NCBI GenBank assembly: GCA_022984795.1
Contig: JALIHJ010000006.1
Location: 275,177 to 339,176, forward strand
DNA from: Fabrea salina
Lineage: Eukaryota > Ciliophora > Heterotrichea > Heterotrichida > Fabreidae
Reading direction: 5' to 3'
DNA length: 64,000 nucleotides
In this document: positions 5,042 to 54,555 of the stretch, in pieces
Position numbering within the stretch: the first letter of the stretch is position 1
How the letters are laid out: the number at the start of each line of letters is the position of its first letter
Made by a program: the position numbers and the translations under genes
The notes under the pieces: model-generated
What the model was told of the DNA's origin: nothing
The model's database searches: none
What the model saw: only the letters and a program-made list of their open reading frames with translations

Positions 5042-5482
5042 ATGATTTTAAAAAGGTTTTTCAGCAGAGTTCCAGTTAACAAATTAGAAGTTTCTTTCAG
5101 CAGGTCTTCAGGTCCAGGAGGACAAGCTGTGAACAAGCAAAACACCAAGGTGGACTTGCGGTTCAAGCTTTCAGAAGCTGACTGGATTCCCGAAGCAACC
5201 AAAACTAGACTGAACGAACTGTACTCAAACAACATCAACAAAGAAGGCGAACTTTACGTGAGTTCCCAAAGTAACTACTAAACAGAGTACCGAAACCAAA
5301 AACAGAACTATGATGACGCTGTGCAGAAGATCGAAGCAATGATTGAAGTAGCCAGCAAACCTAAAGTTGAACGCGTGATCAAAATGAAAGAAGAAACCCA
5401 AAAAGAAGAAGACTTCAGAATCAAACAAAAAAAACGCAGAAGCGAATTCAAACAACTCAGAAGCGAAAAGTTCGAGTTTTAA
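5042..5482 (+). CDS. ICT1: Mitochondrial peptidyl-tRNA hydrolase of ArfB/ICT1 type (spliced, 141 aa)
   Basis: This family rescues stalled ribosomes by hydrolysing peptidyl-tRNA through a GGQ loop. The GGQ is at residues 26-28 within SRSSGPGGQAVNKQNTKV. The first reading frame stops inside a 15-nt intron (5271-5285). Removing it restores the family's C-terminus (QKYRNQNRNYDDA) and the Lys/Arg-rich tail that enters the mRNA channel, ending at TAA 5480-5482. The start at 5042 (MILKRFF) gives a short, basic, mitochondrial-type leader; an upstream in-frame extension would run into the divergent RING gene. Confidence 0.92.
5271..5285 (+). other. 15-nt spliceosomal intron in the ArfB/ICT1 gene
   Basis: The sequence gtaactactaaacag starts GTAA, ends AG and has an A at position 10. 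It carries an in-frame TAA, and removing it joins the GGQ domain to the conserved C-terminal tail. Confidence 0.93.
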
Positions 5483-5501
5483 CTTAATCACTGATATAAA
5501 A

Positions 5502-5735
5502 ATGATGTTCGCGAGAACTCTAAAAAGCACCCTGCGCTTAACTTCGAGTTTCAAGCACCAAACCCGAGTGTACTCCCAAATGTAAACTTAAAGTAGGTAC
5601 CAACTCCAAGCTTACCGCAACAAACTAGTTACAAGCCACATACACAACCTGGCCTACCTGCACATGGGAGCCAGCAACTACTTGGACCTTAACGACCTAG
5701 AAGACTCTGAAGACCTTGAAGAAGACCCAACGTAA
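5502..5735 (+). CDS. Small unknown protein, 72 aa, probably mitochondrial (spliced)
   Basis: ATG at 5502 gives MMFARTLKSTLRLTSSFK, a basic, amphipathic leader free of acidic residues that looks like a mitochondrial presequence. The frame hits TAA immediately after residue 27 unless the 15-nt intron 5582-5596 is removed. It then continues through YQLQAYRNKLVTSHIHNLAYLHMGAS to an acidic tail (LEDSEDLEEDPT) and TAA at 5733-5735. No family is recognised. It lies 19 bp after ArfB on the same strand. Intron consensus, leader and codon use make it a credible gene although it is short. Confidence 0.75.
5582..5596 (+). other. 15-nt intron in the 72-aa gene
   Basis: The sequence gtaaacttaaagtag has GTAA, A at position 10 and TAG at the end. 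In frame it would give a TAA stop at its second codon. Confidence 0.85.
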
Positions 5736-5817
5736 GTGATTTTTTATGTAGTATGAGCATTTCTAAGACAACGGGCGCCGTAGCGTAACTTAATACTCCA
5801 TTTCACTCTAATTAAAC

Positions 5818-8999: not shown

Positions 9000-9010
9000 T
9001 TACTTAATAA

Positions 9011-11727: not shown

Positions 11728-14454
11728 ATGGAACCTGGAGTTTCTTCAAGACAAGAGTCCCAGTCTTCAGGCGCAATGGCACTTTACAGAATGACTATCA
11801 ACCAAGAAGACAGACTGCTCAGTAAACTTTCAAAAGCCTCTTTAGGCATGGCTTTCCCCAGTTGCCTCATTGGAGTCTTGGGGTTGGCAGCTTATTTGAA
11901 AACCAGCCACATTTTCCTCATAATCCCTCCTTTTGTTTCTTTAGTAGCGTTTGGGGGGTCCGTTGCTACTTACTTAAGTGCTAAGTACGCCAGGGCGAAC
12001 TTAACGCGGCAAAGAGCAATGATAGGTTCCTGGAAAGGGTTGGTAGCTCAGGACACGTTGATGTATTCACTGTACTTTTTGCACGTAGCTGCGAGTTTTT
12101 ACTTCTTTTTAGGAGTGATTTCTTTGATTTCCCAAGAAGTACTTATGGGGCCTATAGACGACGAAGAGCAGAAGTGGAAGATCAGGTGGTTGCTTTTTTT
12201 CATAAGTGGAGGGTGTTTGAAGTACATTTTGGGGTACCTTTACATTTTCTGGGTTGCGTGTAAGCTTGCAGTGGACTACGAAAACATCCAGAACTACTTC
12301 CAGGTGATCCAGTACACCTTGAACTGCATGGGAGTTGCTTTGGTGTTTTGTCCCACAGTGTACTGGTGGTACTGGAGTGCTTTTAGCATACAAGAAGAAC
12401 TCAACCCCATAATCATCAAGGCAGGAGTGCTCCTTGGAGTCTTTATACTGAGTATTTCTATGCTGAACTACTACTCTGCTTACAAAGAAAAGCCCAACCA
12501 ACTTGTTTTGTCTATGATTTTGCAAATCATTTCTATTATATTTTGCAGTTTCTACGTAGTAATGATTGTTGTTTACACACAAAGCTACTTGAATTCTCTT
12601 TACCCCAATTGTTATGACATCTTGCGCATGATGTCTTCTACCCACATCCAAAAACTAGGGTGTCCTTCTAAGTACTTGGCACTCTCAGACTCTACTAACT
12701 TTAACTGTACAAAAGGCCAAACTTCTTTAGCCTGGGAGGAACCCAGCCACTACGGGTGTCTGAATCCTCAGTGCTGCGACGTGATCTCACAGTCTTCTAC
12801 TGCGGGACTGGACTACATGATTGGCTTCGCCGTCACTGCCATGCTGATGCTGAGTTTGACTTTTTACTCTTCTCGTTACTTGCTGCGCAAGATCCAGAAG
12901 TTTGGACTCAGTCAAGACAAACGAGTAGACGACAAAATATTTCTAGTTATTGTACTCAGCTTCTTCGTAGTGATGGCCTGGGCCTTTGCAGCTAAGTTCG
13001 AAGTAGACATTGCCGTTCCTCGAACAGGCGTAAGTGTTCAGGTAAAAGACGCAGGTGCACTTCCTAGTAAATATCTGACTGAAGAATACTGTGTAAAAGG
13101 AATAGACATAGACATAGGTAGTAACTGGAACTTAAGACGTGAGTTCTTAGTAGAGGTAAGTGCCCAAGGAGCTGAACTCAGAATTCTTGAGGGGCCTGAG
13201 TTCACAGCAACTGCTGTGGAAACCAAAAGAATTCTTAAGGAGTCAAGGTTGTGTCCCCACTACTTAGGAGTGCCTATTTTGGTTTCAGTGGAGTTGTGGG
13301 AAACACGGAGACTCCAAGAAGACTACGAAGAAGACTACGAAGAAGACTACGAAGAACTTCCTCCCCAGCCAAAGTAAGCTTTACTTAGCTTTTTGTTCCA
13401 AAAAAACATAACTATCCATCCTGTGTCCTACAGCCAAGTTTCTCTAGCTGTGTTGGACGGAAAGCAACCCCTGGAAAACACTACTATTCAAAGCAAAAGC
13501 CACATACCACCCTTTGAGCACCACTTGCCCAACCTAACTCTCCAGCTGCCCTTGGCTCCTAGAGCTTACTTGTCCTCAGTAAGCATCAGCAACCCTTTTT
13601 TTGCAGACACTACTTACAGTATTAGAGTGGGTGCTCTGCCTTACGGGAACTACTCAGTTCCAAGTGTGCACCTTGCTCCAGCAATTAACCAAACACTTTG
13701 CTTAAACGGCACAGTTCACGACTTCCATATGAACGAAAGAGTACCAAGTGGCAAAGCAGTGCTTAAAAAAGGAGCTTACTCAGCAAGTGCTTTTTTAACT
13801 CAAGCCTTCCAAAACAACACTTTTAGTTTCTGTAACTTGGAACCAGGGGTCTACACTCTGGAAGTTTCAGCAGACAAAAAGCACACAGCAGTGCTGTTAG
13901 TAACTCTCAGCCAAAACAAACAACTTAGGGTGCCTGTGACTCCGTTTAACTTATCGCCTGACATGGTTAGATTTGTTTTGGGCTGGGAAGGCCAAACAGA
14001 CCTAGACATCCACGCAGTTTTCAACACAAACAAGTCCCAAACTTGTCTAGTAGACTTTGCAAACCCTAAATGCGGAGGTGCGAAACTCAAATCTTCCGAG
14101 AACCAAGAAAGTTTGACTCTAAGAGAAGTAGGAACAAGCCACTACCTTTTGTTTGTTAAGAAATACTCAAAGTCAGAAGGCACTCTAGGAACAACTGGAG
14201 CTTGGCTGAGCACTTACATTGCAAACCACCACGAGCCAGTAAGCATTGTAGGAATTCCTTACGAAGACTCCCAGAAAGACGCTTGGTTGGGTTTGTGCTT
14301 AGAAGGAAGAAGAGGAGTCAAAAGTTTAGTTGCAGTGAACCAACTTCTCGAGTACAACTACTCCACAAACTACAAGCAAGTGTGCAAAACCCTGCTAGGA
14401 AAAGAAAGGTGGCCTCAAGAAGAACTTGAAGCTGGCGAGATTCTAGTAGAATAA
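11728..14454 (+). CDS. Nine-helix membrane protein fused to a large ectodomain with a DUF2135-like module (spliced, about 903 aa)
   Basis: Two open frames, 11728-13377 and 13389-14454, become one gene when the 15-nt intron 13374-13388 is removed. The N-terminal half has about nine membrane helices and a Cys-rich loop (CYDIL, CPSKY, CTK, CLNPQCCD). The acidic repeat EEDYEEDYEEDYEEL ends just before the junction. The second half is Asn- and Thr-rich with many N-glycosylation sequons and beta-sandwich-like repeats. It contains FVLGWEGQTDLDIHAVF followed by CLVDFANPKCGGAKL, resembling DUF2135 (TDLDxHV) domains. A surface receptor or adhesion role is inference. An internal Met at 11776 is an alternative start. 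Confidence 0.82.
13374..13388 (+). other. 15-nt intron joining membrane and ectodomain halves
   Basis: The sequence gtaagctttacttag has GTAA, A at position 10 and TAG. Without splicing the protein ends at TAA four residues after the acidic repeat. With splicing the frame runs on for another 1.07 kb that has no ATG near its own start. Confidence 0.92.
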
Positions 14455-20134: not shown

Positions 20135-21286
20135 ATGTCTGAAAGCGACCAGGAAAGGAACTACTTGAAGCAGATGGTTGGAATCAAAAGCGAAAGAGAC
20201 AACCTGAAACGCAGCAACCAGTACTACGTAAAACAAGTAAGCCAAATGGAAGTTAAAATCAGCGAACTCAAAGCAATGCTCCAGGCAAAGGACTCTGAAA
20301 TACAGTACTATAAAAATAAACTACTCCACCTCGAAGAAGAAAACAGCCGAGCAATGACAGACACCATGGAAATGTCTTCGCGCTCCATTCACGAGTTAGA
20401 ATCCAAACTCGTAATGCTTGAAGAAGAAAACGAACACCTTAAGTCCCTAACTAACAACTCAGACATACTTGACCTCAAAGTGCAACTTGAACACGCCTTG
20501 CTAATGAAAGACACCTTTGAAGAAAAGTACCGCGAAGCCAGACACGAACTCCTGAAAAACGAAGCCTTGGATGAGTCCAACAGAAGCCTGCAAGAAAAAC
20601 CCAAACTCCAAAAAGAGACCCAAGTCTCTCAGGAAAACTACAAACTCAAACAAGAACTCCAACAACTCAAACAAGAACTCCAACAACTCAAAAACTCAAA
20701 TAACGAACTTTCCCAACAAAACAACCAGCTCCAACAAAAGCACACACAAGTCACTAAAGAAAAAGAAAACCTAGCTAAAGACAAAAACAGGCTTTCTGAA
20801 GAGTTTTCTCAACTCGAAAGACAACTAGAAGAAGTCACACAGGAAAAACTCCACTCAGAAGCCAAACTCCTGGAACTCAAAAAGGACTCTGTTTTCTTCC
20901 AACCTGAACACATGGAAAAGCAGAACTACTTCCGTCACACCGAACCTAGTTTCGAAGAGTTCGAAACCTTCCACAGACCCAAGACTCAAAGGTCAGGCGA
21001 GTTCTACTCAACCTCCAGCACTCCTTCACAGAAAAAAGCAGCTTTTCCAAACGTCCAGATTCCCCAACAGTCCCCTACAAGACCAAGAATGCTCAAAGAT
21101 TTAAAAAAGTCCTCTACTTCTTCCTTGTCTTCTTACAATCAAACTTCTGTCAACAAGCCAGTAGACTTTGTTCCTAGTTTTATGCGTGCTAAAAAACCCA
21201 TGCACAAAAACCACGTGATTGACCTAGACGGCAGTGGGCCTGACTCTTTTGCTGACGACTTTCCTGATGAGGATGAGCTTGCTTAA
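20135..21286 (+). CDS. Long coiled-coil protein, 383 aa
   Basis: Residues about 5-255 are nearly continuous coiled coil, including a short tandem repeat, KQELQQLKQELQQLK (about 170-186). The C-terminal third is Ser/Pro-rich and basic with a terminal acidic cluster (DDFPDEDELA). A structural or basal-body role is plausible but not shown. The stop TAA (21284-21286) overlaps the stop of the convergent gene on the other strand, the two together reading TTAA. Confidence 0.8.
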   Translation: MSESDQERNYLKQMVGIKSERDNLKRSNQYYVKQVSQMEVKISELKAMLQAKDSEIQYYKNKLLHLEEENSRAMTDTMEMSSRSIHELESKLVMLEEENEHLKSLTNNSDILDLKVQLEHALLMKDTFEEKYREARHELLKNEALDESNRSLQEKPKLQKETQVSQENYKLKQELQQLKQELQQLKNSNNELSQQNNQLQQKHTQVTKEKENLAKDKNRLSEEFSQLERQLEEVTQEKLHSEAKLLELKKDSVFFQPEHMEKQNYFRHTEPSFEEFETFHRPKTQRSGEFYSTSSTPSQKKAAFPNVQIPQQSPTRPRMLKDLKKSSTSSLSSYNQTSVNKPVDFVPSFMRAKKPMHKNHVIDLDGSGPDSFADDFPDEDELA

Positions 21287-28486: not shown

Positions 28487-28560
28487 TTCCGCAACCGGGA
28501 CTCGAACCCGGGTCTTTCGGGTGAGAGCCGAAGATCCTAACCAGACTAGACTATTGCGGA
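28487..28560 (-). tRNA. tRNA-Glu(CTC)
   Basis: The complement folds as a cloverleaf: acceptor stem TCCGCAA/TTGCGGA, a D arm of the usual Glu type with a 9-nt loop, anticodon stem TTCGG/CCGAA with loop CTCTCAC, and T arm CCGGG/CCCGG with TTCGAGT. The anticodon CTC reads GAG (glutamate). The discriminator is A (28487), and it is directly followed by a run of five T on the transcribed strand (28482-28486), an expected Pol III terminator. No intron is present. Confidence 0.95.
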
Positions 28561-36886: not shown

Positions 36887-37540
36887 TTAAGATCGATAAG
36901 TAGGTATTTTGGACTTGATTATGGGTGTTACTTCTTCTCCTCCCTGCTCCTCTAGCGTCATAAGTACCTGGAGTACTTTGTCCCGAAGAGTTCTGTCAGA
37001 GAGTTTCTTTCCTAAGTGCTGCAAAAACAAGTGCACGTGTGGATTCAAGTAAGGACCTACTAACTCCGACAAGATTCTTAGTGTTTCCAAAGCAGCCGAA
37101 AACACTCCTTGCTCTCTGCTCATAAGTGCCATGCGTAGGGGCCTCACTAGTCTAGGAATGAGGGGCAGAGTCTTTTCAGCAGCTCCTTCAGCTGTGAGTA
37201 ACTCCAGAGTTCCTTGGCGCGCTACAAACACAAAGGGGTGCTCAGTTTCAAGTAAGCCCTCTAAGCAAGTCACTAGCAAGGGGTCGTAGTTTAGTTCTGA
37301 AGGAGGAGTGTCCCACTGAAGTCTGTTGTTGACAGAGCCATGATTGATTCTACAAGGAATGCCCCCTGCATTGTAAACGTACCCTAAGTTGCTGCTTAAA
37401 ACTTACGTTTTGGCTTTGTTTTTGGGTTTGAAAGGGTCTGCGGTTTTGATGTTCAGTCTTTCACTGGGTTTGGAGGTGTAAGGACCTGTCTTTTTTTCTT
37501 CTTTTCTTTCTGGGGTTTCCTTTTTGGTTCTTCTGTTCAT
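36887..37540 (-). CDS. PACRGL: PACRG-like (PACRGL) ciliary protein, 212 aa (spliced)
   Basis: The first exon begins at 37540 (MNRRTKKETPERK) and ends at KPKNKAK. Removing the 15-nt intron 37392-37406 adds TNLGYVYNAGGIPCRINHGSVNNRLQWDTPPSELNYDPLLVTCLEGLLETEHPF, matching the PACRGL signature (IPCRxxHGSVxxRLQW). A helical ARM-like repeat follows, ending GGEEVTPIIKSKIPTYRS. Related PACRG is an axonemal inner-junction protein, so a microtubule or cilium role is expected. It ends 9 bp downstream of the RRM gene's stop on the same strand. Confidence 0.92.
37392..37406 (-). other. 15-nt intron in PACRGL
   Basis: On the coding strand gtaagttttaagcag: GTAA, A at position 10, CAG end. It carries an in-frame TAA, and without splicing the PACRGL signature is unreachable from the ATG. 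Confidence 0.93.
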
Positions 37541-39416: not shown

Positions 39417-42400
39417 TTAGTTAACTATATGCTTTTCAAGTAGGGAAACTCTAGACTCGAGACTGCGAATAGTGTCAATGAGTTTAGTTTCCTGGGACTT
39501 GTCTTGGTCTTGTATAGAAAGAGCATTGTGCTGGGGGAACCAAGACACGTCATGCTCGTTGTACTTTTCTCGAATGTAGGACTCTATTCCTGAGTACTCG
39601 GTTTCGTCTTTGCTAAGTAAGTAAGCTATGAACAAGATGTAGTTCCACTCGTTGTGCTCTTTAAGGGCGTGGAACCTAAACGACCTGGAAGTTTTTCTTT
39701 CAATGTAGTCTCTGTTCAAGCCACAAATGTAGCACTTAGTTTGCCTGTCCTTGGTGTTGGCTTCAAGTTCTTCCCTCAACACTGCAAAGGTGTCAATGAT
39801 GTTTCCTGCAACTATGCTCATCATTATGATGAGTATTACTATGTTAAACAAGTTGTCGTAAGTCAAACGAAGCCAGTCAGTAGAATTCCCCCAGTCCCCC
39901 AAGTACCCCCCAATGCCTCCGTCGTTTTTAAAGCCTTGGTCCCAAATCGTGATTGTGCACTTAAACAAACTGTCACAGTCATTCCCAAAAAAGTCCTGCA
40001 AAAACAAGTAACCAATTATCCCAAACAAGTACACAAAAATCAAAGTCAACAAAAACGTCAGCAAAAGTTGCTTCTTGGGCTTCACTATGGACTTAATCAC
40101 GTTTTGCAGCGAAGGGTACCTGTTGATTATGTCCAAAAGTAACAGCGAAAAAAACAAGTGGTTCCCAAAAGTACCCATGACCGAAAAGGCCATGTAAGCT
40201 GAGTAGTAAATCACTTCAAAGTTGCTCAAAAGAGTCAAAAAGGCACTGATGATCTGGAGAGCCCTTTTCCAAAGGACCTTTGTCCAGCGAGGCTCAGCTT
40301 TCCAAAACTCACTAGAGGGTTCCTTTGCAAGCCATCCCCGCCGAGCAAGCAGAGGACCTACTTTCATAAAGAAAAACATCACTATCATCAAACAAGAAAT
40401 AGTTTGGACAAACCCCAAAGACATTATTAGGGTTTCAGTGCTTTTTTTGCCCAAACCGTAGTCAGAGCCACTGCTTTCGTAGTAGAAAAGAGAAGGTTCG
40501 TCTTTCCTGTCGGTGTTGTACCTTGAGTAAGAAAATATCAGTATGAAGTTCAAGCAAAGAGTCATCAAAAAAGCCAGTTCTCTCCACAGTGAAACGTTAG
40601 AAGCTATGGCAGAAATGACTTTGTTCCTGTCAAAGAACTTTCTAAGGGAGTGTTCGTGCTGCATTTTTTCTATAGTGAGTTCTGCTGAGTCAACTAAAGA
40701 CTTAAGTTTGCTTTGGTCAGAACTCCGGTCTACTTCTAAGTGGAACTGTTCCTTGATCTCTTCACTCAGACCTTTTACTTCAGGTGGCAAGTAGAAGTAA
40801 ATTTTCGTCAGGTTCTCCATAAACACTACTTCAATGTTCCCAGTGTTCCTCTCAAAAAAGTCGTAAGCTGACTCAAGCGTTTTTTGCCTTTCTTGGAACT
40901 TCTGGCTGCTGGCTTGTCTTCCAGCTAGTCTGCTCACAGTTGATATTCCTGACTTGAGAAAAGCCATTCCTATTCTGCTCAGTCCTCCTAAGAGTTTCGA
41001 CCCTGGAAAACTAGACTCGTCTTCCACTTTTGCTTGCAGCTCAAAAAGTTCGTTTTCAATGATTTCTTTGTTTTCAGGTTCGTCGCTGTCGTTGAAGTAC
41101 TTCATCAAGTGGTAAATCATAAACCCTACTTCAATGATTGTTTGGTAGTACTTAGGGTTCAGGTCCTGGCTGTTTTCTGCAGAGTGGGAGTTGTAGTTTT
41201 CGTTGTCTAAAAAGTGGTTGAAGACCTCTTTGTCGTAGAAGTCACCTCCGTAAAACTCTGTGTAAGAAGTAAACACACTCACTAAGTTTTCTTTAAGCAC
41301 TTCAATGTTTAAGGCTCGGATGAGTCTAGTAATGGCGAAACTGTCCTTCCTGCCTTCAAGTAAACTCAAAAGAGTTATCATGCACTTGTACTTCAAGTGA
41401 GCAATCATCCACCCACTGAGGACCTCCACCCCTCCATAATCCCCTGTAAGTTCTGAGGGAGTGCCTCTTTGGTAGTCTTCTTTCAATGAGTCGTAGATCT
41501 CTATTTCTTCAGCCCTTTCGTTCAAAGAAAGGATTCCGGTGGCGATTTCCAGGAACTGGGAGTCAATGATTGACTCCTGGTTTTTCATGCAGGGTCCTTG
41601 CACGAACTCAGTCAAGGTATCTAAACACTGGGAAATTTCCAAGAAAGTTCTGGCGTACTTCTTCTGCACTAGGTTTTCCAGCAAGTTAATTATGTCGTGT
41701 ATCATGTTGTAGTTAGTTCTTGACTTGTGCTGGTGTCTTATATAATTCTGAAGCAAGTCATTGTGGTTCTCGCACAAAAGCTGGAGGAGTCTCAGGACTG
41801 TTTTGATTTTGCTTTCTTTTTTCTTGTAAACTGGTGCTTTTTTCTTAGTCACTGGAGGGTTATTGGACACCTTTTTGGTGTGTTCTTTAAACAAGTTGTG
41901 GACTCTTTCGAAAAACACTTCTGAGTAAGGCACGTTTATGAAGAACTGGTAAAACTCTTGCTGGACTTTTTGGTTTCCGTTGTCGAGCAGTTGAACTGAT
42001 AACTTCATCAAGGCCTTAAACACACTCATGTCTACACTTGAGTCACACAGTAGAGTCAAAGAAACCCTTCCAGCGCCGTAGGAGTTGAGCTTCTCCTGGA
42101 CTTCCAGTTTGACTTTTTCTGGTTCTTCCATCTTTTCGCACACTGGGTCTGCAATCAGAGCAGCTAGGAACTCAATGGCCTTCAAAGTCATTTCGTTGCT
42201 GGTTTGGTTCCTTCCCAAACGAATGAACTCCACCAAGGCCTTTGCAACCTTTTCAAAATTAATGCTTTCGTCCATTCTGTGGATGTTGTAAACAGCCACC
42301 CTCAAGGCTTTGTCTTCTAGCTTGAGCAGGTGTTTTATTCCTTCGTCGTGTACTAGTTCGTTTTTTACTTTTTTCCAACTCTTAAACACGTCACAGCAGC

Positions 42401-45400
42401 TTTCTTCATAAAAACCGTACACTGAAGTTCCTTTGAAAAGACTAGGAGGAGCAAGTGGGTCCAACTCGTCTTCTTCTGCGTCACTCACGTTTACACTGAA
42501 CAAAAAGTCGTAGTCAAAGTAGTTGCAAAGTGCTTGGATGTCACTTAGAAGTTTCGAAGGAATGATTCCTTCTGAAAACAGTCTGCCGCTTTCAGTCAAA
42601 GCCTCTACGTAGTTCTTTATAGCTTCGTAGTCTTCTTTTTGCTTGCTCATGTTTTTGGACTCGTGGCAGTACAGCCTCAAAGTCTTCACCCAAACTCTCA
42701 GGAACTCTATCATGTGCTGGTTGATTTCTTCGGAAGCTCTTAACTTGTGGGCTTGGAAGTTTACGTACTCCAGGAACTTTTCGGACTCCCTTACTTCTTC
42801 GTTGAACTTTTCACACTCTAAGTAAATGTGTTGGAAGAAGTCCAGCACTGGAATTTTCAAACTGTGCAGTTCCGACTGACCTTCTTCTGCTTCAAACAGA
42901 ATTTCAATGATTTTGTTAATTGGAAAGATCTTTTGGCACTTTGCTTCGTTCAAGTACATCCCTAGTTTTCCGTAGCCGCTTTTAGCTAACACCTTCACTA
43001 ACTTCCTGTGGTAAGCTACTGGTTTGTCTCTTTCCAGAGTTTTTTCAAAGTAAAAGTCCAAGTTCTCGTTTAGGTAAAGAAGGACTTTGTTAGGGTGCTC
43101 CCCAATAAACAGGTTAAGCACCATTATTTGGACTTGCTGGATAGGTGTTTCGTTGCACACTTGGATAGTGTCGAAGAGCTCCAGAAACATAGGGTCTCTG
43201 CCTTTAGTTTCAATCAGTGTCTTCACGGAGTAAAGGATTTCCGGGTTGATGTTGAGTATAAGTTGCATGTTTTCTCTGTAGATCTCGCAAATCAAAGGAA
43301 TCTGCCCTAAGTCTATAGACAAGTACTTAGAAAACAGGTGCACAGACTTCTCTAGTTTTTTCTGGTTTTTGGAGTTGCGAGTAACGAACTTCCTGAGGAT
43401 CTTGTGGCAGAGCGTGAAGAGTTGCTTTAGTTTGCAGGCTTCAGCTTCTTTGTTGGGATCTGAGCAGAGTTCTTTGAGAGTGTGCATTCCGTCCTTGATG
43501 AGTTTGGTGATTAAGTCGTGGGCTTCTAAGAAGTAAAGCATTTGCTGTCTCGACTTAGAAATGTTTCTGTTGTCGCCTACTAATGGCTTTTGCTCCACAA
43601 TGTAAGTTTCTTCGTAAAGGACCAACTCTAGGTTTTTGAGGATCCAGATGATTTCGTTGAACTTCTTTTTGAACTTTCTGCGTTTTTGAACGTCTTGGTC
43701 CCAGTACCTAAGGGCAAGTTCACTCTTTTCGCCGAGTTGTTTGAACTGGGACAGGTTTTCTTTCAGCCACCTCAAAAGTTCAATTTCTTTGTCGTGGGTG
43801 ATCACGTGCAAGTGACTCAAAGACTTAAGTAGTTCTGTTCTTTGACTGAAGCATCTCAGAATCAAGGAAAAGACTGAACTCTTGAGTTTGTAGTTGCTAG
43901 ACTCCACAAACACCTTAAACAACTCAGAAACCACTTTTTCTGGAATAATGGTGTCCATGTCTTCTATTTCTTCTTTAACTACTTTTTTGAACCTGTGGCC
44001 GTAAATGTCTTCAGCAAGTCTGTCTAGAGAGTCAAACTCTTCTCCGTGTCTGATTTCCATCACTTCTGGAAGCAGTTTGGCAAACTTCTTGGAACTCTCT
44101 AGGTTCTTAAGGTTTTGTGCTTTGAAGAACTCCACAAAGTTCGAAATCAAAAAGTCTTGTCGCCAGTTAAGCAAAAAATGGTACATCCCACTGATTTTAA
44201 TCTTAATCCGAGTTCCGAAGTCTTTCAAGTTCTGCGAAACCAAAGAGTTAGACTTCAGAGTTTGCAGAAAGTTCCTTAAGTTAGTGGCACACCTAATTAT
44301 GGGGTCGGAAGCGTTGTGTGGGTCGTTGTGCAGTTTGGTGAGGAAGGAGTTCTTTTTCCTTTTCTGTTTTTTAGACTGAAGTTGTTCATAGCTAGAAGTT
44401 GTCTTCAACTTAGAGTACCTAGGAACCTGACTGCTTTGTTGCGTCGCAAAAAAGTAAGAAACACACCTTAGTAAACCAACTAAGTCCATCCGGGCAGACT
44501 CTTTAAAGTTCAAGCTGTTTTTCAGTACCTTTGCACTAGTTCCGTACAGTTCAAACCTGAGCATTTTGTCAGCTAGTCTCAGTGTTTCATAAGAAAGCGA
44601 GTCAAAGTACAACTCTCCAGAGTCGCTTTCGCCGTCTCCGTCCAAGTAAAAAAACTCCAAAGTTCTAGAAAGTATTCTGTCGATTTCCTTGTCTGTCCAG
44701 TAAACTTTTTCTTGGTTTTCAGACTTACTCGAAGTTTCCACTGTATTTTTGCGGTAAATTGGGTTTTCAGAAGTCAGTTTGGTAGAAATCCCTTCGTTGT
44801 TAGGCGAAATAGCTTCTTCAGACAGAGCAGAATTGCCCGAGTGCAGGACTCTTATGAGTTCTGGTTTTTTGGACTCTTCCCTTGGGTGAATGTCTAGGTG
44901 AATAGTCAACAACAGCTTAGTAAGTGCTGCCCTCAACTCTCTGTCTATTCCTTGGTCCCATATCATGGAACTCAACAACCCCACCGGAAAGTGCTCTTTG
45001 AAGGCTTCAATGCAAACAAAGTTCCTTCCCAAACACAAGTTCGCAAAGAACTCCAACAACTCCTTCAAGTACTCTTTGGACTCCCCTCTGGTAATTTTTT
45101 CCTTGAGCAAAGACACGTCGTTTTCAGCCAAGTCCCTTCTAATGAGGTCAAACACTTTTTCCTGATTGATTGTGACACCTTCTCCTTTAAACACACAAAT
45201 TGACTTAAAGAACTTAATCAACTCTGGGCTTTGTTTGTTCCTCACTTTGAGTTCAGCGTAGTGCTCAATTATTCCGTTTTCAGAAATCTTGTACATAAGT
45301 TCTTCGTTGTCCCTCAGCATTGAAAGAATGCACTCAGTTGCTCCAAGTCCCAGTCCTACGTGCCCACTGAACACCCTGACTATGTTCATGGCTTCGTACT

Positions 45401-47072
45401 GGTTTTCTCTGTTTTTGTTGCACAGAGTTTTCAGCAGTTGGTAAATGCTTGCAACTAACTCACTTAAGTAACTTGCATCCAGCAAGTGCAACTCAGTAAT
45501 AATCTCCTTGTTCTTCTTGAGTTCCCTTACTTGGTGTAGGTACTTTTTCTTGACTTCAGCAATCTCAAGAACAGCTTCAATGGCTTCAAAAAACCTTTGT
45601 TCTCTAAGCATACGCTGTCTTTCTCTCTGAACTTCTCCATACTGGTTGTCCAGCCCCATCATGCTCTGCAGTTTGTTTTTGCAAAACAACTCTAGGTCAT
45701 TCACACACTTAATCACAAGTTTCATAAGCTTTTCGAACTCCCTCGTGTTGTTTTTGTCAATACTTAGTCCACTTGCTAGTTGGCGGTACCTGGTTGGAAA
45801 GTTCTTTATGATTGGGTAGCAGTGCAGCAAAAACAAAGTTTCAAGCACAACTTGTCCGTCTGCACGGCTGAACTTAAAGTAGTTAGGCTCTTCAATGTAT
45901 GTTTGGAAGTAAACTCCTGACTTCAAGTCCACTCTCCCCGAAATAGTTACTCCGTTCTCTGCATTCTTCAAAAGGCAAACTTCGTCTGACTGAATGAACT
46001 TCGACTCTGCACTCAGAGGAACAAAACTCCAGTTAGCTCGTTCATCGTCACACCTGTTCCTTGTAAGTTTCAGTCTGAAAACCAACTTGTCTTTGAATTC
46101 GTCTTTCTTCAAGTACAAGTACCGCCCCGTACTTACATGCTTGAGTCTGTAAGTCTCCTTTACGTTAACTAGTCCCCCTGCAGCTTTATTTAGGCTCTCG
46201 ATCATCCACAGTCCATTAGTGTCACTAAGGTTTTCGTTCAAATAAACAACTCTTCTTGTGCTGATGCAGCCATAAGACAAGCACTTTTCTTCCTCAGTGT
46301 GTGTGAGCCAAATGTAGTCCCCACAAGTCAAAACATAAGGGTTCTTCTTGTTGTAAGGAGTGAAAAGGTCAATTGTCCAAGTAGTTCGGCAATCCAAAGA
46401 AGCATTTACTTCCATTGGTTCTGAAAACAACCTAGGGGCCCTAACAGACCAAGTAGCCTGTCGGATGAAACTAGCCCCCAGTGCTTTAGTTTGACTTGCG
46501 TGCAGGTTCGCGACTCTGCTCATATAAGGCACCACTACCTCTAGTTTCAGCTTATCCCCAATCTTCACGTAAGCTTCTCCTTCGCGCTGGAAGTTGTAGG
46601 CAGGTTCGAGTTTAAAGTGGGACTCTTCGCTTCCGTAGTCTTCCAGAGTGATTTTAAGGTTTTCCTTTTCGCTTTCAGCACTTTCACTGCTGATTGTCAA
46701 GAAACGACGACTTTGCACATGCTCGAGTTGGACCAACGACCCGAAACGAATGGGTTCTCCTTTCAACTTGTTGTAGGTTTGGTGGTTGGTCTTGGTTTCT
46801 CCGTCCAGTGCGTCTTCTAGTTTTTCAAGACGGTTTTTGAGTTTTCTTTCCTGTCTTCTTTCAATCACTTTTAAGATCTGGGCTTGGGTTGAGTGCAAGC
46901 ACTGGGGAATTATTCTGAAAACTGCTCCTTCAAAGTTCAGTTCTGGGTTCCGCACATCGTCTAAAGTCACCCTATTATCTATGAAGCCTTCTGAGTACAG
47001 GAACTTGTTTTTTTCTGCAGACAGAGTTATAAGTGCTCCATAGTGAAGTATTGGTGCCCTTTCACTTGACAT
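39417..47072 (-). CDS. ITPR-like: IP3-receptor-like intracellular calcium channel, 2,551 aa
   Basis: Large tetrameric Ca2+-release channel. The N-terminus (APILHYGALITLSAEKNKFLYSEG) is the IP3R/RyR suppressor-like domain. MIR-type beta-trefoil repeats follow to about residue 430, then RIH and RIH-associated helical domains. Six membrane helices lie at about 2160-2430. The pore has DGGIGGYLGDWGNS (near 2386) in place of the vertebrate GGGVGD filter. The tail has the CYICGLNRDYIERKT...FHALKEHNEWNYI zinc site (about 2450) and a final coiled coil (RSLESRVSLLEKHIV). The IP3-contact residues cannot be verified here. It is one exon with no disrupting intron. Confidence 0.93.
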   Translation of the reverse strand: MSSERAPILHYGALITLSAEKNKFLYSEGFIDNRVTLDDVRNPELNFEGAVFRIIPQCLHSTQAQILKVIERRQERKLKNRLEKLEDALDGETKTNHQTYNKLKGEPIRFGSLVQLEHVQSRRFLTISSESAESEKENLKITLEDYGSEESHFKLEPAYNFQREGEAYVKIGDKLKLEVVVPYMSRVANLHASQTKALGASFIRQATWSVRAPRLFSEPMEVNASLDCRTTWTIDLFTPYNKKNPYVLTCGDYIWLTHTEEEKCLSYGCISTRRVVYLNENLSDTNGLWMIESLNKAAGGLVNVKETYRLKHVSTGRYLYLKKDEFKDKLVFRLKLTRNRCDDERANWSFVPLSAESKFIQSDEVCLLKNAENGVTISGRVDLKSGVYFQTYIEEPNYFKFSRADGQVVLETLFLLHCYPIIKNFPTRYRQLASGLSIDKNNTREFEKLMKLVIKCVNDLELFCKNKLQSMMGLDNQYGEVQRERQRMLREQRFFEAIEAVLEIAEVKKKYLHQVRELKKNKEIITELHLLDASYLSELVASIYQLLKTLCNKNRENQYEAMNIVRVFSGHVGLGLGATECILSMLRDNEELMYKISENGIIEHYAELKVRNKQSPELIKFFKSICVFKGEGVTINQEKVFDLIRRDLAENDVSLLKEKITRGESKEYLKELLEFFANLCLGRNFVCIEAFKEHFPVGLLSSMIWDQGIDRELRAALTKLLLTIHLDIHPREESKKPELIRVLHSGNSALSEEAISPNNEGISTKLTSENPIYRKNTVETSSKSENQEKVYWTDKEIDRILSRTLEFFYLDGDGESDSGELYFDSLSYETLRLADKMLRFELYGTSAKVLKNSLNFKESARMDLVGLLRCVSYFFATQQSSQVPRYSKLKTTSSYEQLQSKKQKRKKNSFLTKLHNDPHNASDPIIRCATNLRNFLQTLKSNSLVSQNLKDFGTRIKIKISGMYHFLLNWRQDFLISNFVEFFKAQNLKNLESSKKFAKLLPEVMEIRHGEEFDSLDRLAEDIYGHRFKKVVKEEIEDMDTIIPEKVVSELFKVFVESSNYKLKSSVFSLILRCFSQRTELLKSLSHLHVITHDKEIELLRWLKENLSQFKQLGEKSELALRYWDQDVQKRRKFKKKFNEIIWILKNLELVLYEETYIVEQKPLVGDNRNISKSRQQMLYFLEAHDLITKLIKDGMHTLKELCSDPNKEAEACKLKQLFTLCHKILRKFVTRNSKNQKKLEKSVHLFSKYLSIDLGQIPLICEIYRENMQLILNINPEILYSVKTLIETKGRDPMFLELFDTIQVCNETPIQQVQIMVLNLFIGEHPNKVLLYLNENLDFYFEKTLERDKPVAYHRKLVKVLAKSGYGKLGMYLNEAKCQKIFPINKIIEILFEAEEGQSELHSLKIPVLDFFQHIYLECEKFNEEVRESEKFLEYVNFQAHKLRASEEINQHMIEFLRVWVKTLRLYCHESKNMSKQKEDYEAIKNYVEALTESGRLFSEGIIPSKLLSDIQALCNYFDYDFLFSVNVSDAEEDELDPLAPPSLFKGTSVYGFYEESCCDVFKSWKKVKNELVHDEGIKHLLKLEDKALRVAVYNIHRMDESINFEKVAKALVEFIRLGRNQTSNEMTLKAIEFLAALIADPVCEKMEEPEKVKLEVQEKLNSYGAGRVSLTLLCDSSVDMSVFKALMKLSVQLLDNGNQKVQQEFYQFFINVPYSEVFFERVHNLFKEHTKKVSNNPPVTKKKAPVYKKKESKIKTVLRLLQLLCENHNDLLQNYIRHQHKSRTNYNMIHDIINLLENLVQKKYARTFLEISQCLDTLTEFVQGPCMKNQESIIDSQFLEIATGILSLNERAEEIEIYDSLKEDYQRGTPSELTGDYGGVEVLSGWMIAHLKYKCMITLLSLLEGRKDSFAITRLIRALNIEVLKENLVSVFTSYTEFYGGDFYDKEVFNHFLDNENYNSHSAENSQDLNPKYYQTIIEVGFMIYHLMKYFNDSDEPENKEIIENELFELQAKVEDESSFPGSKLLGGLSRIGMAFLKSGISTVSRLAGRQASSQKFQERQKTLESAYDFFERNTGNIEVVFMENLTKIYFYLPPEVKGLSEEIKEQFHLEVDRSSDQSKLKSLVDSAELTIEKMQHEHSLRKFFDRNKVISAIASNVSLWRELAFLMTLCLNFILIFSYSRYNTDRKDEPSLFYYESSGSDYGLGKKSTETLIMSLGFVQTISCLMIVMFFFMKVGPLLARRGWLAKEPSSEFWKAEPRWTKVLWKRALQIISAFLTLLSNFEVIYYSAYMAFSVMGTFGNHLFFSLLLLDIINRYPSLQNVIKSIVKPKKQLLLTFLLTLIFVYLFGIIGYLFLQDFFGNDCDSLFKCTITIWDQGFKNDGGIGGYLGDWGNSTDWLRLTYDNLFNIVILIIMMSIVAGNIIDTFAVLREELEANTKDRQTKCYICGLNRDYIERKTSRSFRFHALKEHNEWNYILFIAYLLSKDETEYSGIESYIREKYNEHDVSWFPQHNALSIQDQDKSQETKLIDTIRSLESRVSLLEKHIVN

Positions 47073-49033: not shown

Positions 49034-49729
49034 ATGAAAAGGCGCGCAAGTACACAACTAACTCCTAAGTCACAAGATCCTTCATACGAAGAACCTTTGT
49101 TTCCGCGTGCAGAAAAACCCAACACACTAAGAACAAGTTATAAGCCTATCAAACCCCTCAACTGGAACTTAGTTGACAACAAAACTCCTCCTTGGAAAAA
49201 ACCCCTTCCTCAAAAAACTGCTCCTCCTACTTCAGAGAACTTTAGTGAGATGCTGTCTTTTCTGCAAAGCAAGTCTGTCCAGAACCAAACAGACGAGTTC
49301 CTACACAACTCAAACAAACCCGAAGCCAACACTCCTAGAAAAATACTTCCCGTTCCTACACCTCAAAGGTCTCTTTACACTCAAGTCTTTAACTCCGAAG
49401 CAAAGTTAGTGGCTCCTCGCAAAATCAACCAGTCGAACTTGTTGCTCATGAGTTCAAAGGACTTTAGAGTGAATTTATTGGTTTTAAGGGATTGCATTGG
49501 CAAAATCAGGTTCTCAGGAGCAATAAACAAAACTACAAAAACTTCAGAACTCCAAGAAGGCTGCAAAAAGCACCACGAAACTAACGTCCACTTGCAAGTT
49601 AAAGTGTTTGACCTGAACCAAAGTAAACCCCAAGAAGCAGTTTTTTGCTTGAAAAAAGAAAACTCAACTAAACTAATTCAAAAAATAAATGATATTTCCC
49701 AGACAGTCAAACCACCAGTAAATCCCTAA
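49034..49729 (+). CDS. Unknown Pro/Lys-rich protein, 231 aa
   Basis: MKRRASTQLTPKSQDPSYEEPLF; an N-terminal half rich in Pro, Lys and Asn, then a folded-looking stretch (LLLMSSKDFRVNLLVLRDCIGKIRFSG). No domain is recognised. Its TAA (49727-49729) overlaps the stop of the spliced convergent gene by two bases. Confidence 0.65.
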   Translation: MKRRASTQLTPKSQDPSYEEPLFPRAEKPNTLRTSYKPIKPLNWNLVDNKTPPWKKPLPQKTAPPTSENFSEMLSFLQSKSVQNQTDEFLHNSNKPEANTPRKILPVPTPQRSLYTQVFNSEAKLVAPRKINQSNLLLMSSKDFRVNLLVLRDCIGKIRFSGAINKTTKTSELQEGCKKHHETNVHLQVKVFDLNQSKPQEAVFCLKKENSTKLIQKINDISQTVKPPVNP

Positions 49730-50089
49730 TCTTTCTATTAAGTTACGAGTTTTTGCGATTTCAGTTCTTATCTTGAGCACAAACTTGAATTTATGAGATT
49801 TGACACACTCGTTAAAACCCTTAACTTCATTTCCTTTTAAGTACTCCATGCAGTAGTTCTTGCCCTTTTCCTCAATTTCTTGAGGTTTAGTTTCACTCAA
49901 AACTTGGTTTATTGACTCAAGTCTGTGGTTGCAAAAACTCTGGAGCTGACTAGGACAGACTGTTAGTTTGTTTTTCAGAGACTGCAACTCTGAGTAGTAC
50001 TCAAAAACCTTGGAGTCTCCATGGAACTGCTTGACAGTGTTTCCAGTCTTAAGGTTCCTGTATTGTCTGAAGAACTCTTGTTTGTCCAT
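49726..50089 (-). CDS. Unknown helical protein, about 115 aa (probably spliced)
   Basis: MDKQEFFRQYRNLKTGNTVKQF, with helical Cys-containing repeats. Read straight through it would extend to 49673 and overlap the + gene by 57 bp. If the 16-nt intron 49731-49746 is removed, the protein ends EIAKTH and stops at TAG (49728-49726), exactly at the neighbour's stop. That non-overlapping fit is why I prefer the spliced model. Family unknown. Confidence 0.65.
49731..49746 (-). other. Probable 16-nt intron
   Basis: Coding strand gtaacttaatagaaag: GTAA start, AG end, and an A six bases from the 3' end as in the 15-nt introns. Support is indirect: splicing makes the two convergent genes meet at their stops. 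Confidence 0.65.
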
Positions 50090-50111
50090 TAATTACAAGA
50101 TTGAATATTTA

Positions 50112-51443: not shown

Positions 51444-52061
51444 ATGTTGGGTCGTGGTATACAAATAATGGCCAGGCACATGAAAATATATACAAAAACC
51501 GGAGACGCAGGGTCAAGTATGCTGTTCAGTGGCGAAAGGAGACTTAAAAGCAACCAGGTGTTTGAGGCTTTGGGGAACACTGATGAACTGAATGCTCATC
51601 TAGGACATGTAAAGTTCACTTAGGTACACTCGTCACTCCAAGAGCACAACGACATAAAAGAAAAACTAGAGTCAATTCAAAGCCGACTTATAGATGTTGG
51701 GAGCTGCATTGCCACACCTTTAAAATCTTCCACTGAAGCCCGGAGAAACAGGGCAGCTTTTGATAGTTCCAACACAAAAGTGCTGGAAGACTGGATAGAC
51801 GAAATGGAAACTGAACTGCCTCCCCTGAGAAACTTTATCTTGCCTTCAGGAGGAGAGCCCAGTTCGAGACTGCACATAGCAAGGTCAGTCTGCAGAAGGT
51901 TGGAACGCAGTTTGGTAGTTCTGCTCGAAACTGAAGAACTCGAAGCAGGGACTTACTCTTACGTCAACCGACTCAGCGACTTCCTTTTCGTACTTGCAAG
52001 GCTAGTGGCAAAGAGGACAGGCAACTCAGAAGTCGTTTACCAAAAACCTAAACAAAAGTAA
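51444..52061 (+). CDS. MMAB: ATP:cob(I)alamin adenosyltransferase (MMAB/PduO type), 200 aa (spliced)
   Basis: Makes adenosylcobalamin from vitamin B12, normally in mitochondria for methylmalonyl-CoA mutase. [25 protein letters not shown] is the ATP-binding N-terminal motif. After removal of the 15-nt intron 51609-51623, [19 protein letters not shown] runs into the conserved [25 protein letters not shown] and [14 protein letters not shown]. It starts at 51444 with a short leader ([13 protein letters not shown]). Its stop abuts the stop of the convergent NDE1-like gene exactly (52061/52062). Confidence 0.95.
51609..51623 (+). other. 15-nt intron in MMAB
   Basis: The sequence gtaaagttcacttag has GTAA, A at position 10 and TAG. 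It lies in phase 0 and ends with an in-frame TAG. Confidence 0.95.
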
Positions 52062-52766
52062 TCATTTCAGCTTATTTGTCTTTTTATACTCAGTAATGTT
52101 TGAGCTAATGGTAAGTATTAGGGAGTCAATCATCTCAAGTGCATCGGTTCCGTCCACGTCAAACTGGAACTTGAACTCGTTCTTTGTGTCAGGAGGAGGT
52201 TGTTCCATTTCAGATGAGTTGTTGTGGGACTTCTTGATCAGTTCTAGTTCTTGCTGCAACTCATTGATGTGGTCTTTCATCCTTTGAGAGTTTTCTTGAC
52301 TAGCATTTTTAACGTAGTCAAGTTCGCTTCCGGTTATTGCTAGGTCTTCTAAAGTTTTGTGGTAAAAGCTCCTCAGGTCTTGGTTCTCGGCGTCTTTTTC
52401 TCTGAGTCGGAGTTTCAAGGCTTCGTTTTCTGTCTCGAGTTCCTTGATTTGTAGGTTCAGAGAATTTAGTTGGTCTTCTCCTACTAAGGAGGATTTTTTC
52501 CTTTCGATTTCAAGCTCTTTAGACAACTTTAAATACTCAGAGTGCAGTTTATCGTAGCTTTCTTGCAAACTTTCGTTTTTTTGTTCCAAGTCGTGGTTTT
52601 TCAACAGAGCTTTTTCTAAGTCCTGCTCCATCTCAGCCTCGAGGGTTTTGCTCATTTCTTCCTAAAAGTTACCTTGAAACTCTTCGAACTGCTGCTGGAG
52701 TTCCTTTAGTTCTTTGTTCGTGCTTTCGTACAACTTTTTATAGTCAACATCCGCACTTTTTGCCAT
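52062..52766 (-). CDS. NDE1: NudE/NDE1-like dynein regulator, 229 aa (spliced)
   Basis: NDE1 binds LIS1 and dynein. The first exon (52766, MAKSADVDYKKLYESTNKELKELQQQFEEFQ) joins at the 15-nt intron 52658-52672 to EMSKTLEAEMEQDLEKALLKNHDLEQ. This gives the diagnostic EFQExSxxLEAEMExxL block of the NUDE family, followed by a long coiled coil. Without the intron only the second exon (from an internal Met) would be predicted, losing the signature. It ends in TGA. The first codon directly follows the MARC TAA on the same strand. Confidence 0.88.
52658..52672 (-). other. 15-nt intron in NDE1-like gene
   Basis: Coding strand gtaacttttaggaag: GTAA, A at position 10, AG end, with an in-frame TAG. It separates the first 31 codons from the rest. 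Confidence 0.92.
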
Positions 52767-53687
52767 TTAATTAGAATTTCTAACTTCCCTTGATACTACG
52801 TTCACTTTGTCTTTGACATGGATTGACCCTTTGTTTTTCTTCACTGCCCACAGCCCAAAGTACGCCTTAACTCCTTTCCCGTGGACTTTCCTCAGTGTCT
52901 TAAGGGGTTCTTGCTGTTTGTCCATTTCAGCTGACGAAAAATTCACAGTTGTAGCTCTGCACCTATAGCACATTTCCACTCCCTGGAAAACCACTCCATT
53001 TATTTCAAAAACTTTCCAGTTGTCTTCGTCAAAGGGCTCACAGTTCTTCACAACTATGTTGGGTCGGAAATTCGAAATAGGGATTTCTTCAGGCTTGTTT
53101 TTGGGCAAGTACTTACACAGCTTTTCGTAAGACTCTTCACTCACCACCAACACTTGTGACTCGTCTGCAAACCCCAACTCAAAGTTCCCTTCGTCTTTGC
53201 TTTGCTCAATCTTTCGGTGCTTCTTGATCTTCACGAGGCTGTAAGATTTTTCAAAAACCATACTCAGCCATTTTGAGGCTTCAGGCCCAATATCTACTGC
53301 TCGGCCTGCCGCTTTTCCAAGTTCTACTTCAAATTCTTCGCCACCCATCTCGTCTAATGGCAACTTTAATTCCGGAAACTTCGGGTATGTTAAAACAAGG
53401 TACTTGTACTCGTTTTCAAAGCCAAACTCAAACTTAGGCTGCAGTTTGTATAACCTAGGTTCTTCTCTGAGTGAAATAACTTGTTTGTTCTCATCAACTA
53501 CAGCCCACTCTCGATCCCTCTTTAAGCCTAAGTCTGAAATCTCAGCTTCCAATAAATGAATCCCCGCGCAGGACTTTACGGGGTAGTAAATTATGTCTGA
53601 TACAACTTTCACTTTCTTTGTTTTACTGTTGAAAACTAATAGGCAAACTACTATAAACACAAAAGTCAATAGCATGTAAAAGTCCAT
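52767..53687 (-). CDS. MOSC-domain molybdenum enzyme (mARC-like), 306 aa
   Basis: mARC reduces N-hydroxylated compounds using a molybdenum cofactor at the mitochondrial outer membrane. It has an N-terminal hydrophobic anchor (about 5-22), the MOSC_N block (IIYYPVKSCAGIHLLEAEISDLGLKRDREWAVV), then MOSC with NFRPNIVV and GVEMCYRCRATTVN, the region carrying the Mo-coordinating Cys. Its TAA is followed immediately by the ATG of the NDE1-like gene on the same strand, with no spacer. Confidence 0.9.
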   Translation of the reverse strand: MDFYMLLTFVFIVVCLLVFNSKTKKVKVVSDIIYYPVKSCAGIHLLEAEISDLGLKRDREWAVVDENKQVISLREEPRLYKLQPKFEFGFENEYKYLVLTYPKFPELKLPLDEMGGEEFEVELGKAAGRAVDIGPEASKWLSMVFEKSYSLVKIKKHRKIEQSKDEGNFELGFADESQVLVVSEESYEKLCKYLPKNKPEEIPISNFRPNIVVKNCEPFDEDNWKVFEINGVVFQGVEMCYRCRATTVNFSSAEMDKQQEPLKTLRKVHGKGVKAYFGLWAVKKNKGSIHVKDKVNVVSREVRNSN

Positions 53688-53715
53688 ATTCTATTATCAT
53701 CCCTACTCATAATTT

Positions 53716-54555
53716 ATGAATATTGCTGTTTCAGGCTGCACTCATGGAAACCTAGACCTGCTTTACCAAGAAGTAACTAAACTCCAAGATTCCAAAAACA
53801 TAAAAGTGTCCTTGCTTTTGTGCACTGGAGACTTCCATGCTATACGTGATTTTGAAGACCTCGACTCTATGACTTGTCCTGCCAAGTTCAGAAAGCTAGG
53901 CGACTTCCACAAGTATTACACAGGCCAGGCAGTAGCTCCTGTGACAACTGTTTTCATCGGGGGAAACCATGAATCAGTTTCCCACATGCACGAGTTCCAA
54001 AACGGAGGGTGGGTAGCTCCAAACATCTACTACATGGGAAGAGCGGGCGTCATAAAGTTCGGCGACTTACGCATTGCTGGAGTTTCTGGAATTTACCACC
54101 AAAAAGACTACTTTAAAAATGTCCCCACTCACTGTACTCCAGCTGCTATTAAGACTTTGTACAGGTACCGTAAATCCGAAGTGGAGAATCTAATGCGGAT
54201 TTCCCCTCCAGATATAATGCTCTCACACGACTGGCCTCGGGGTATATACCACTACGGAGATGTAGAACAGCTAATTAGAAAAAAGCCTTTTTTCAAAGAA
54301 GAAATCTACGCAAACCAACTGGGTAGTCCCCCCACTGAAGAATTACTAGAAGTCCTAAAGCCGTAATTCTTACTCAGAAAGTACTGGTTTGCCTCCCATC
54401 TGCACGTTTACTTCCAAGCACAAAAAGAAAACACTCATTTTATAGCACTAGACAAAGCACTTGAACAAAGAAATTTTGTTGAAATAGTAACTATTGATGC
54501 AAGTGAAGGGGCCATTACTCCAGATGAAGAATGGCTAAGGATCATAGGTAATTAA
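53716..54555 (+). CDS. DBR1: RNA lariat debranching enzyme DBR1, 274 aa (spliced)
   Basis: Cleaves the 2'-5' branch of intron lariats. Metal-site residues are complete by family pattern: C8 and H10 (GCTHG), D39 (GDF), N84 and H85 (GGNHE), H171 (SHDWPR), and H223/H225 in SHLHV. The last pair lies after the 15-nt intron 54363-54377; unspliced mRNA would stop at P216. Compared with animal DBR1 it lacks the long C-terminal domain. GGWVAPNIYYMG and SHDWPRGIYHYGD are typical. The TAA (54553-54555) is followed directly by the next ATG. Confidence 0.95.
54363..54377 (+). other. 15-nt intron in DBR1
   Basis: The sequence gtaattcttactcag has GTAA, A at position 10 and CAG. Splicing joins LKP to KYWFASHLHVYF, restoring the conserved debranchase end. 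Confidence 0.95.

What the first reader, a model, noticed from the sequence alone, without database searches (positions are those of the whole stretch)
5271..54377. A class of 15-nt introns with a fixed branch A, all carrying in-frame stops
Seven 15-nt introns (5271, 5582, 13374, 37392, 51609, 52658, 54363) and one 16-nt intron (49731) restore conserved proteins or gene tiling. Every 15-mer is GTAA...A at position 10...AG, leaving five bases after the A. All are 3n long yet contain a stop in the host frame, as if selected so that retention triggers decay. Ascertainment bias: only frame-breaking introns are visible by this approach; silent 15-nt introns would be hidden inside the ORFs.
Basis: partly seen in the sequence, partly recalled or inferred. 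Interest (0 to 1): 0.75.

Follow-up and report, generated by a model that had tools for sequence, protein, structure and literature searches.

The report
Fifteen-base introns of a heterotrich ciliate
A chromosome end, most likely from a single-celled heterotrich ciliate, carries the 15-base introns already known from Stentor; their built-in stop codons come mostly from the splice signals themselves, and whether selection adds to that is an open question a whole genome could settle.

Summary
All seven read GTAA-N5-A-N3-AG. In five, removing exactly 15 nt gives a protein that aligns without a gap at the junction to a solved homologue (mL62/ICT1, cobalamin adenosyltransferase, Dbr1, PACRG, NudE-like). 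13374 is supported by coding continuity, 5582 only by frame and tiling. The 16-nt intron (49731) is not demonstrated. The window ends in a TGTTAGGG telomere and uses the standard code: most likely a macronuclear chromosome end of a heterotrich ciliate. The intron class is published: in Stentor coeruleus 92.8% of introns are 15 nt, and 90.9% of all introns are 15-mers with the branch A at position 10. The stop claim is true (7 of 7) but mostly built in: four introns are phase 2, where the donor GTAA supplies TAA; two phase-1 introns get the stop from the branch T-A10-R, the phase-0 intron from the acceptor TAG. Stop-free motif copies in coding sequence number 3, against 3.8 expected by synonymous shuffling, so hidden stop-free introns look few or absent; a no-selection model would add about 4 to 6. 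Selection is thus suggested (P about 0.04 to 0.08 with the intron rate integrated), not shown. Decay of retained transcripts is untested.

The parts
5271..5285 (+). 15-nt intron, phase 1, in an mL62/ICT1-like gene (5042-5482)
   Evidence: spliced protein aligns gap-free through the junction to mL62/ICT1 (E 2.5e-23); in-frame TAA at intron positions 9-11
5582..5596 (+). 15-nt intron, phase 2, in a small gene of unknown family (5502-5735)
   Evidence: motif, open frame and tiling only; no family
13374..13388 (+). 15-nt intron, phase 2, joining 11728-13373 with 13389-14454
   Evidence: chosen by gene models that ask only for GT..AG of any length 9-45; 113 codons without ATG downstream
37392..37406 (-). 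15-nt intron, phase 2, in a PACRG gene (36887-37540)
   Evidence: alignment to PACRGA starts about 11 residues before the junction and crosses it without a gap (E 4.8e-20); Pfam ParcG 1.5e-46 begins just after it
51609..51623 (+). 15-nt intron, phase 0, in a cobalamin adenosyltransferase gene (51444-52061)
   Evidence: gap-free at the junction against 2idx_A, E 4.7e-50, with a one-residue gap a few residues further on; stop is the acceptor TAG
52658..52672 (-). 15-nt intron, phase 1, in a NudE-like coiled-coil gene (52062-52766)
   Evidence: gap-free at the junction against NDEL1 2v71_A, E 7.5e-5 with a large coiled-coil bias, so the weakest of the five; stop TAG at positions 9-11
54363..54377 (+). 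15-nt intron, phase 2, in the lariat-debranching-enzyme (Dbr1) gene (53716-54555)
   Evidence: gap-free LKP/KYW junction against 5uki_A, E 1.8e-57; Pfam Metallophos and DBR1
49731..49746 (-). possible 16-nt intron, A at position 11, at the 3' end of a minus-strand ORF (ATG at 50089); not demonstrated
   Evidence: splicing would end the protein at a stop in 49726-49728 instead of 49673-49675; no family, weak coding signal, not called by the gene model
63127..64000 (+). telomere, 109 perfect copies of TGTTAGGG (permutation of CCCTAACA)
   Evidence: same repeat as Blepharisma (PMC9942806 passage)

Best explanation
The window is most likely the end of a macronuclear chromosome of a heterotrich ciliate that uses the standard genetic code. 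The seven 15-mers are spliceosomal introns of the heterotrich kind: donor GTAA, branch A at position 10, a five-base tail ending in AG, removed as a 10-nt lariat loop with a 5-nt tail (the mechanism is inferred from sequence and from what is written of Stentor, not shown here). Their in-frame stops arise mainly because the short splice signals are themselves stop-like in each phase: donor gTAA in phase 2, branch T-A-R in phase 1, acceptor TAG in phase 0. Weak selection against stop-free introns may act on top of this.
For: Gap-free homology at 5 of 7 junctions. Enrichment unique to spacing 15 with a GTAA donor; 10 events at 21 motif sites against 34 at 764 decoy sites. Stentor: 8173 of 8806 introns are 15 nt; 8005 have the A at position 10; 442 16-mers have it at 11; 18.14% of genes hold introns (PMC9505925, section 2.1). 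Here 7 of 45 gene models of positive score hold one (15.6%), after dropping models of negative score and, by hand, one 16-nt call at 21149. Telomere as in Blepharisma. All three stops are used at gene ends (38 TAA, 3 TAG, 3 TGA; one of 45 models is incomplete). Each stop sits in a splice signal; without selection P(stop) is about 0.33-0.43 in phase 0, 0.31-0.43 in phase 1 and 1.0 in phase 2.
Against: No RNA reads were available, so splicing is inferred. Two of the seven introns (5582, 13374) lack a homologue across the junction. The gene model rewards GTAA and A10, so only and the decoys bear on the motif independently. Gene models with free length recovered only one and three of the 15-mers exactly; at the lower intron cost they chose other lengths (12, 30, 30, 36) over nearly the same break at four sites, at the higher cost at three, with 52658 left out. 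With any GT donor, spacing 15 shows no excess. Intron A+T is 68% here against 75.6% in Stentor. A comparison of ciliates finds the conserved A in Stentor and three spirotrichs but not in the other species it examined (PMC10946202 passages), so the fixed A is not shown for all heterotrichs. The species is unknown.
Confidence: 0.95

Rival explanations
1. Selection keeps an in-frame stop in nearly every 15-nt intron, so that retained introns end translation and send the transcript to nonsense-mediated decay; stop-free 15-mers are purged. (An addition to the best explanation, not a replacement.)
For: 7 of 7 carry a stop. Stop-free copies of the motif in coding sequence: 3 (13832, 49623, 53612) against 3.8 expected from synonymous shuffles and 3.25 from codon shuffles, so the best estimate of hidden stop-free introns is zero, one-sided 95% upper bound 0.34-0.37 of introns (two-sided 0.42-0.44); no selection expects 0.38-0.46. 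P(3 or fewer) 0.014-0.056, or 0.041-0.078 with the rate integrated. 13832 lies in a carboxypeptidase-regulatory-like match that leaves no room for a 5-residue insert, though that match is below Pfam's cut-off. Published for 3n introns of other ciliates: Paramecium, Tetrahymena (most lengths), Oxytricha, Stylonychia (PMC5014332 passages; PMC11334263 passage).
Against: Four of seven stops are forced by phase 2 plus GTAA. Permuting the phases among these introns gives seven stops with P 0.086; uniform phases give 0.029. The sample is seven, all found because they break the frame. Two of the three stop-free candidates are undecided. Ultra-short 3n introns of Tetrahymena are depleted in stops. No decay data.
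Confidence: 0.45
2. The stop content is only a by-product of splice signals plus the reader's way of finding introns; no selection.
For: The null model gives 55-62% stops with uniform phase and 100% in phase 2. The introns were found as frame breaks.
Against: The hidden stop-free introns that this predicts (about 4 to 6 in the window) are not seen, though only at P about 0.04 to 0.08.
Confidence: 0.5
3. The stops are read through as sense codons in mid-gene, as in ciliates with context-dependent stops, and the 15-mers are five extra residues.
For: Such a code exists in karyorelicts, the sister group (PMC11441545 passages), and in Condylostoma (recalled).
Against: The spliced proteins align gap-free at the junction in 5 of 7, so the five residues would be an insertion absent from the homologues. 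All seven share GTAA, A10 and AG, which readthrough would not need.
Confidence: 0.02
4. Pseudogenes or assembly errors.
For: None found.
Against: Long intact frames on both sides at most sites, a common motif, conserved proteins.
Confidence: 0.01

Closest known systems
15/16-nt introns of Stentor coeruleus (Slabodnick 2017, not held; Nuadthaisong 2022, PMC9505925, section 2.1 and passages read)
   Same: length 15, GT..AG, A at position 10 with a five-base tail, roughly one gene in six with an intron
   Different: intron A+T 68% here against 75.6%; the donor is GTAA in all seven, while the text read gives only GU (its figure was not seen)
15/16-nt introns of Blepharisma stoltei (PMC9942806, passages read)
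   Same: intron lengths; telomere repeat; gene-dense genome
   Different: Blepharisma reads UGA as tryptophan; here UGA ends 3 of 44 complete gene models
3n introns with in-frame stops in Paramecium and other ciliates (PMC5014332 and PMC11334263, passages read)
   Same: 3n introns carrying in-frame stops
   Different: there 3n lengths are mostly avoided; heterotrichs have fixed on a 3n length, so stop content would have to do the whole job
16/17-nt introns of mikrocytids (PMC10245619, passages read)
   Same: tiny and uniform
   Different: 16-17 nt; unrelated rhizarian parasites

Membership tests
heterotrich 15/16-nt spliceosomal intron | length exactly 15 (or 16) | tested here: met
   spacing scan 9-45 with GTAA donor; gap-free junctions at 15 in 5 of 7
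heterotrich 15/16-nt spliceosomal intron | GT..AG with A at position 10 | tested here: met
   7 of 7
heterotrich 15/16-nt spliceosomal intron | about 18% of genes with introns | tested here: met
   7 of 45 positive-score gene models; stop-free or unmotifed introns would be missed
heterotrich 15/16-nt spliceosomal intron | A+T-rich | tested here: met
   64% at unfixed positions, 68% overall; lower than the 75.6% of Stentor
heterotrich 15/16-nt spliceosomal intron | host is a heterotrich ciliate | tested here: inconclusive
   telomere repeat as in Blepharisma, standard code; no rRNA found and no species match; own genome not held
heterotrich 15/16-nt spliceosomal intron | spliced in RNA | not testable with these tools
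   no reads
heterotrich 16-nt intron (49731) | restores a protein | tested here: inconclusive
   no family; coding score undecided; not called by the gene model
3n intron with selected in-frame stop | more in-frame stops than expected | tested here: inconclusive
   7 of 7 against 55-62% expected; hidden stop-free introns near zero, P 0.04-0.08 with the rate integrated
3n intron with selected in-frame stop | retained transcripts are degraded | not testable with these tools
   needs RNA and a decay-factor knockdown

The most novel reading that the evidence does not exclude
Heterotrichs escaped the usual ban on 3n introns by placing a stop inside a different splice signal for each phase: donor gTAA in phase 2, branch TAA/TAG (T9-A10-R11) in phase 1, acceptor TAG (T13) in phase 0. 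The 15-nt length with A at position 10 lets all three signals double as stops, so splice-site sequence depends on reading phase.
Probability: 0.35. Interest if true: 0.6.

Novelty: already known. Interest (0 to 1): 0.35.

Why it matters
About 95% of heterotrich introns are 15 bp (PMC11441545 passage), a multiple of three, the length class that other ciliates mostly avoid because retention would pass unnoticed. If stops are built into the splice signals phase by phase, that would explain how such introns are tolerated, and it is directly testable on the roughly 8000 annotated Stentor introns. For this window it mainly means that gene calling must allow 15-nt introns.

Tried and rejected
The window's own genome was not held, so the intron sample could not be enlarged. 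A PACRG query found no relative in viral contigs. A telomere-repeat pattern found nothing in viral contigs and 18 stretches in genome contigs whose record titles are bacterial; they were not examined further. Rfam at gathering thresholds found only one tRNA, no snRNA. A first single-strand gene model was too weak (one of seven introns exact, plus two other calls that I take as noise). The two-strand model with free lengths gave three 15-mers exactly and many odd lengths, most of them in weak or negative-score stretches at the lower intron cost. In one search four further introns were called and not counted: 49923, 58291 and 58316 in models of negative score, and a 16-mer at 21149 in a good gene, which I removed by hand before the counts. 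A general excess of in-frame GT..AG over synonymous shuffles (192 against 161) first looked like hidden introns with other donors; it occurs at every spacing 9-45 (z 2.2 to 7.7), so it is not an intron signal. Mikrocytid origin was considered and dropped: introns there are 16-17 nt and G+C is 30-34%. Fabrea salina as the species (streamlined macronuclear genome) is a guess from the title of a paper seen only in reference lists and not held.

Stop content of heterotrich 15-nt introns was not found in print; the searches were (listings only, capped at 10 to 20 rows of up to 699 papers) and term searches inside PMC9505925, PMC9942806 and PMC9942856. Slabodnick 2017 and the Fabrea paper, where it might stand, are not held, and supplements could not be read.
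Full report
What the window is. It ends in 109 perfect copies of TGTTAGGG (63127-64000), a permutation of the CCCTAACA telomere of the heterotrich Blepharisma (PMC9942806 passage). Of 45 gene models of positive score, 38 end in TAA, 3 in TAG and 3 in TGA; one is incomplete. The code is therefore standard, as recalled for Stentor, unlike Blepharisma (UGA = W). Genes are packed tightly: 20 of 44 gaps between neighbouring models are 12 nt or less. G+C is 39-45% in 4-kb steps. The species was not identified; the own genome is not held.

The introns. In five, removal of exactly 15 nt gives a protein that aligns at the junction without a gap: 5271 with mL62/ICT1, 51609 with cobalamin adenosyltransferase, 54363 with the RNA lariat debranching enzyme, 37392 with PACRG (only about 11 aligned residues before the junction), 52658 with NDEL1 (E 7.5e-5 with coiled-coil bias, the weakest). 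13374 joins two long frames; the second has no ATG for 113 codons, and gene models that ask only for GT..AG of any length 9-45 choose it. 5582 has only motif, frame and tiling.

Controls. GTAA..AG at spacing 15 bridges two open frames of 40 codons 11 times; no other spacing from 9 to 45 exceeds 5. At 25 codons it is 14 against 3 to 12, and with any GT donor there is no excess at 15. With the A asked for at other positions the count is 0 to 6, partly at the same sites. Free-length gene models were poorer: one exact 15-mer, three, with other lengths over nearly the same break at three or four sites.

The 16-mer. GTAACTTAATAGAAAG at 49731(-) has its A at position 11, like most Stentor 16-mers, but the host ORF has no family. 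Splicing merely moves the stop from 49673-49675 to 49726-49728, at the end of the convergent gene; coding scores do not decide, and the gene model does not call it. Seventeen 16-mers of this form occur in the window, so chance is a fair explanation.

Known class. In Stentor coeruleus 8173 of 8806 introns are 15 nt and 8005 have the branch A at position 10; 442 16-mers have it at 11; 18.14% of genes have introns (PMC9505925 section 2.1). In heterotrichs about 95% of introns are 15 bp (PMC11441545 passage). Here 7 of 45 models carry one, with negative-score models and one hand-removed 16-nt call left out. A survey of ciliates finds the conserved A in Stentor and in three spirotrichs only (PMC10946202 passages).

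The stops. All seven 15-mers hold an in-frame stop. Four are in phase 2 (5582, 13374, 37392, 54363), two in phase 1 (5271, 52658), one in phase 0 (51609). In phase 2 the donor always reads xxG TAA, so the stop is forced. In phase 1 the stop is T9-A10-A or T9-A10-G at the branch. In phase 0 it is the acceptor TAG. With the motif fixed and interior A+T from 57 to 75%, P(stop) is 0.33-0.43 in phase 0, 0.31-0.40 in phase 1 and 1.0 in phase 2, 0.55-0.61 overall; a matrix from the seven introns gives 0.42, 0.43, 1.0 and 0.62. Permuting phases among the introns gives seven stops with P 0.086, uniform phases 0.029.

The hidden introns. They can be counted as excess motif copies in coding sequence: 3 found, 3.8 expected by synonymous shuffling, 3.25 by codon shuffling. 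One of the three (13832) lies inside a carboxypeptidase-regulatory-like match that fits without an insert, so it is probably coding, though the match is below Pfam's cut-off. 53612 lies at the very edge of the mARC match and stays open; 49623 has no family. The best estimate of the stop-free share is zero, one-sided 95% upper bound 0.34-0.37, against 0.38-0.46 expected without selection; P 0.014 to 0.056, or 0.041 to 0.078 with the intron rate integrated. This counts only GTAA donors and treats the seven known introns as the whole stop-bearing set.

Reading. The introns are, short of RNA proof, real and of a known kind. The stop pattern is explained in large part by the signals; the missing stop-free introns lean towards selection, as reported for short 3n introns of other ciliates (PMC5014332 passages; PMC11334263 passage). 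The bold version, a separate signal-borne stop for each phase, is consistent with all seven and testable on published Stentor introns. Splicing, lariat and decay are inferred; no RNA was examined.

Noticed in passing
3538, 8088, 48145; 52061/52062, 52766/52767, 54555/54556; other gaps of 4-12 nt: Extreme gene packing: 20 of 44 gaps between neighbouring gene models are 12 nt or less, three tandem pairs overlap by one base, and tandem neighbours also lie 0-12 nt apart, leaving hardly any room for untranslated regions or promoters (models without RNA support).
   Followed up: partly
53716-54555: The gene for the lariat debranching enzyme, which opens excised introns, itself carries one of the 15-nt introns.
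   Followed up: partly
63127-64000: Telomere of at least 874 nt in 109 perfect TGTTAGGG repeats.
   Followed up: no
57975-59546 and 61008-63126: Long stretches in which only gene models of negative score were found, a contrast to the tight packing elsewhere.
   Followed up: no
45 gene models, whole window: TAA ends 38 of 44 complete gene models; TAG and TGA three each.
   Followed up: no
28487-28560: One tRNA-Glu (CTC) on the minus strand, the only RNA family at Rfam's gathering thresholds.
   Followed up: no
39417-47072: A 2551-residue protein on the minus strand that looks like an IP3/ryanodine-receptor-type calcium channel (recognised by eye, not searched).
   Followed up: no
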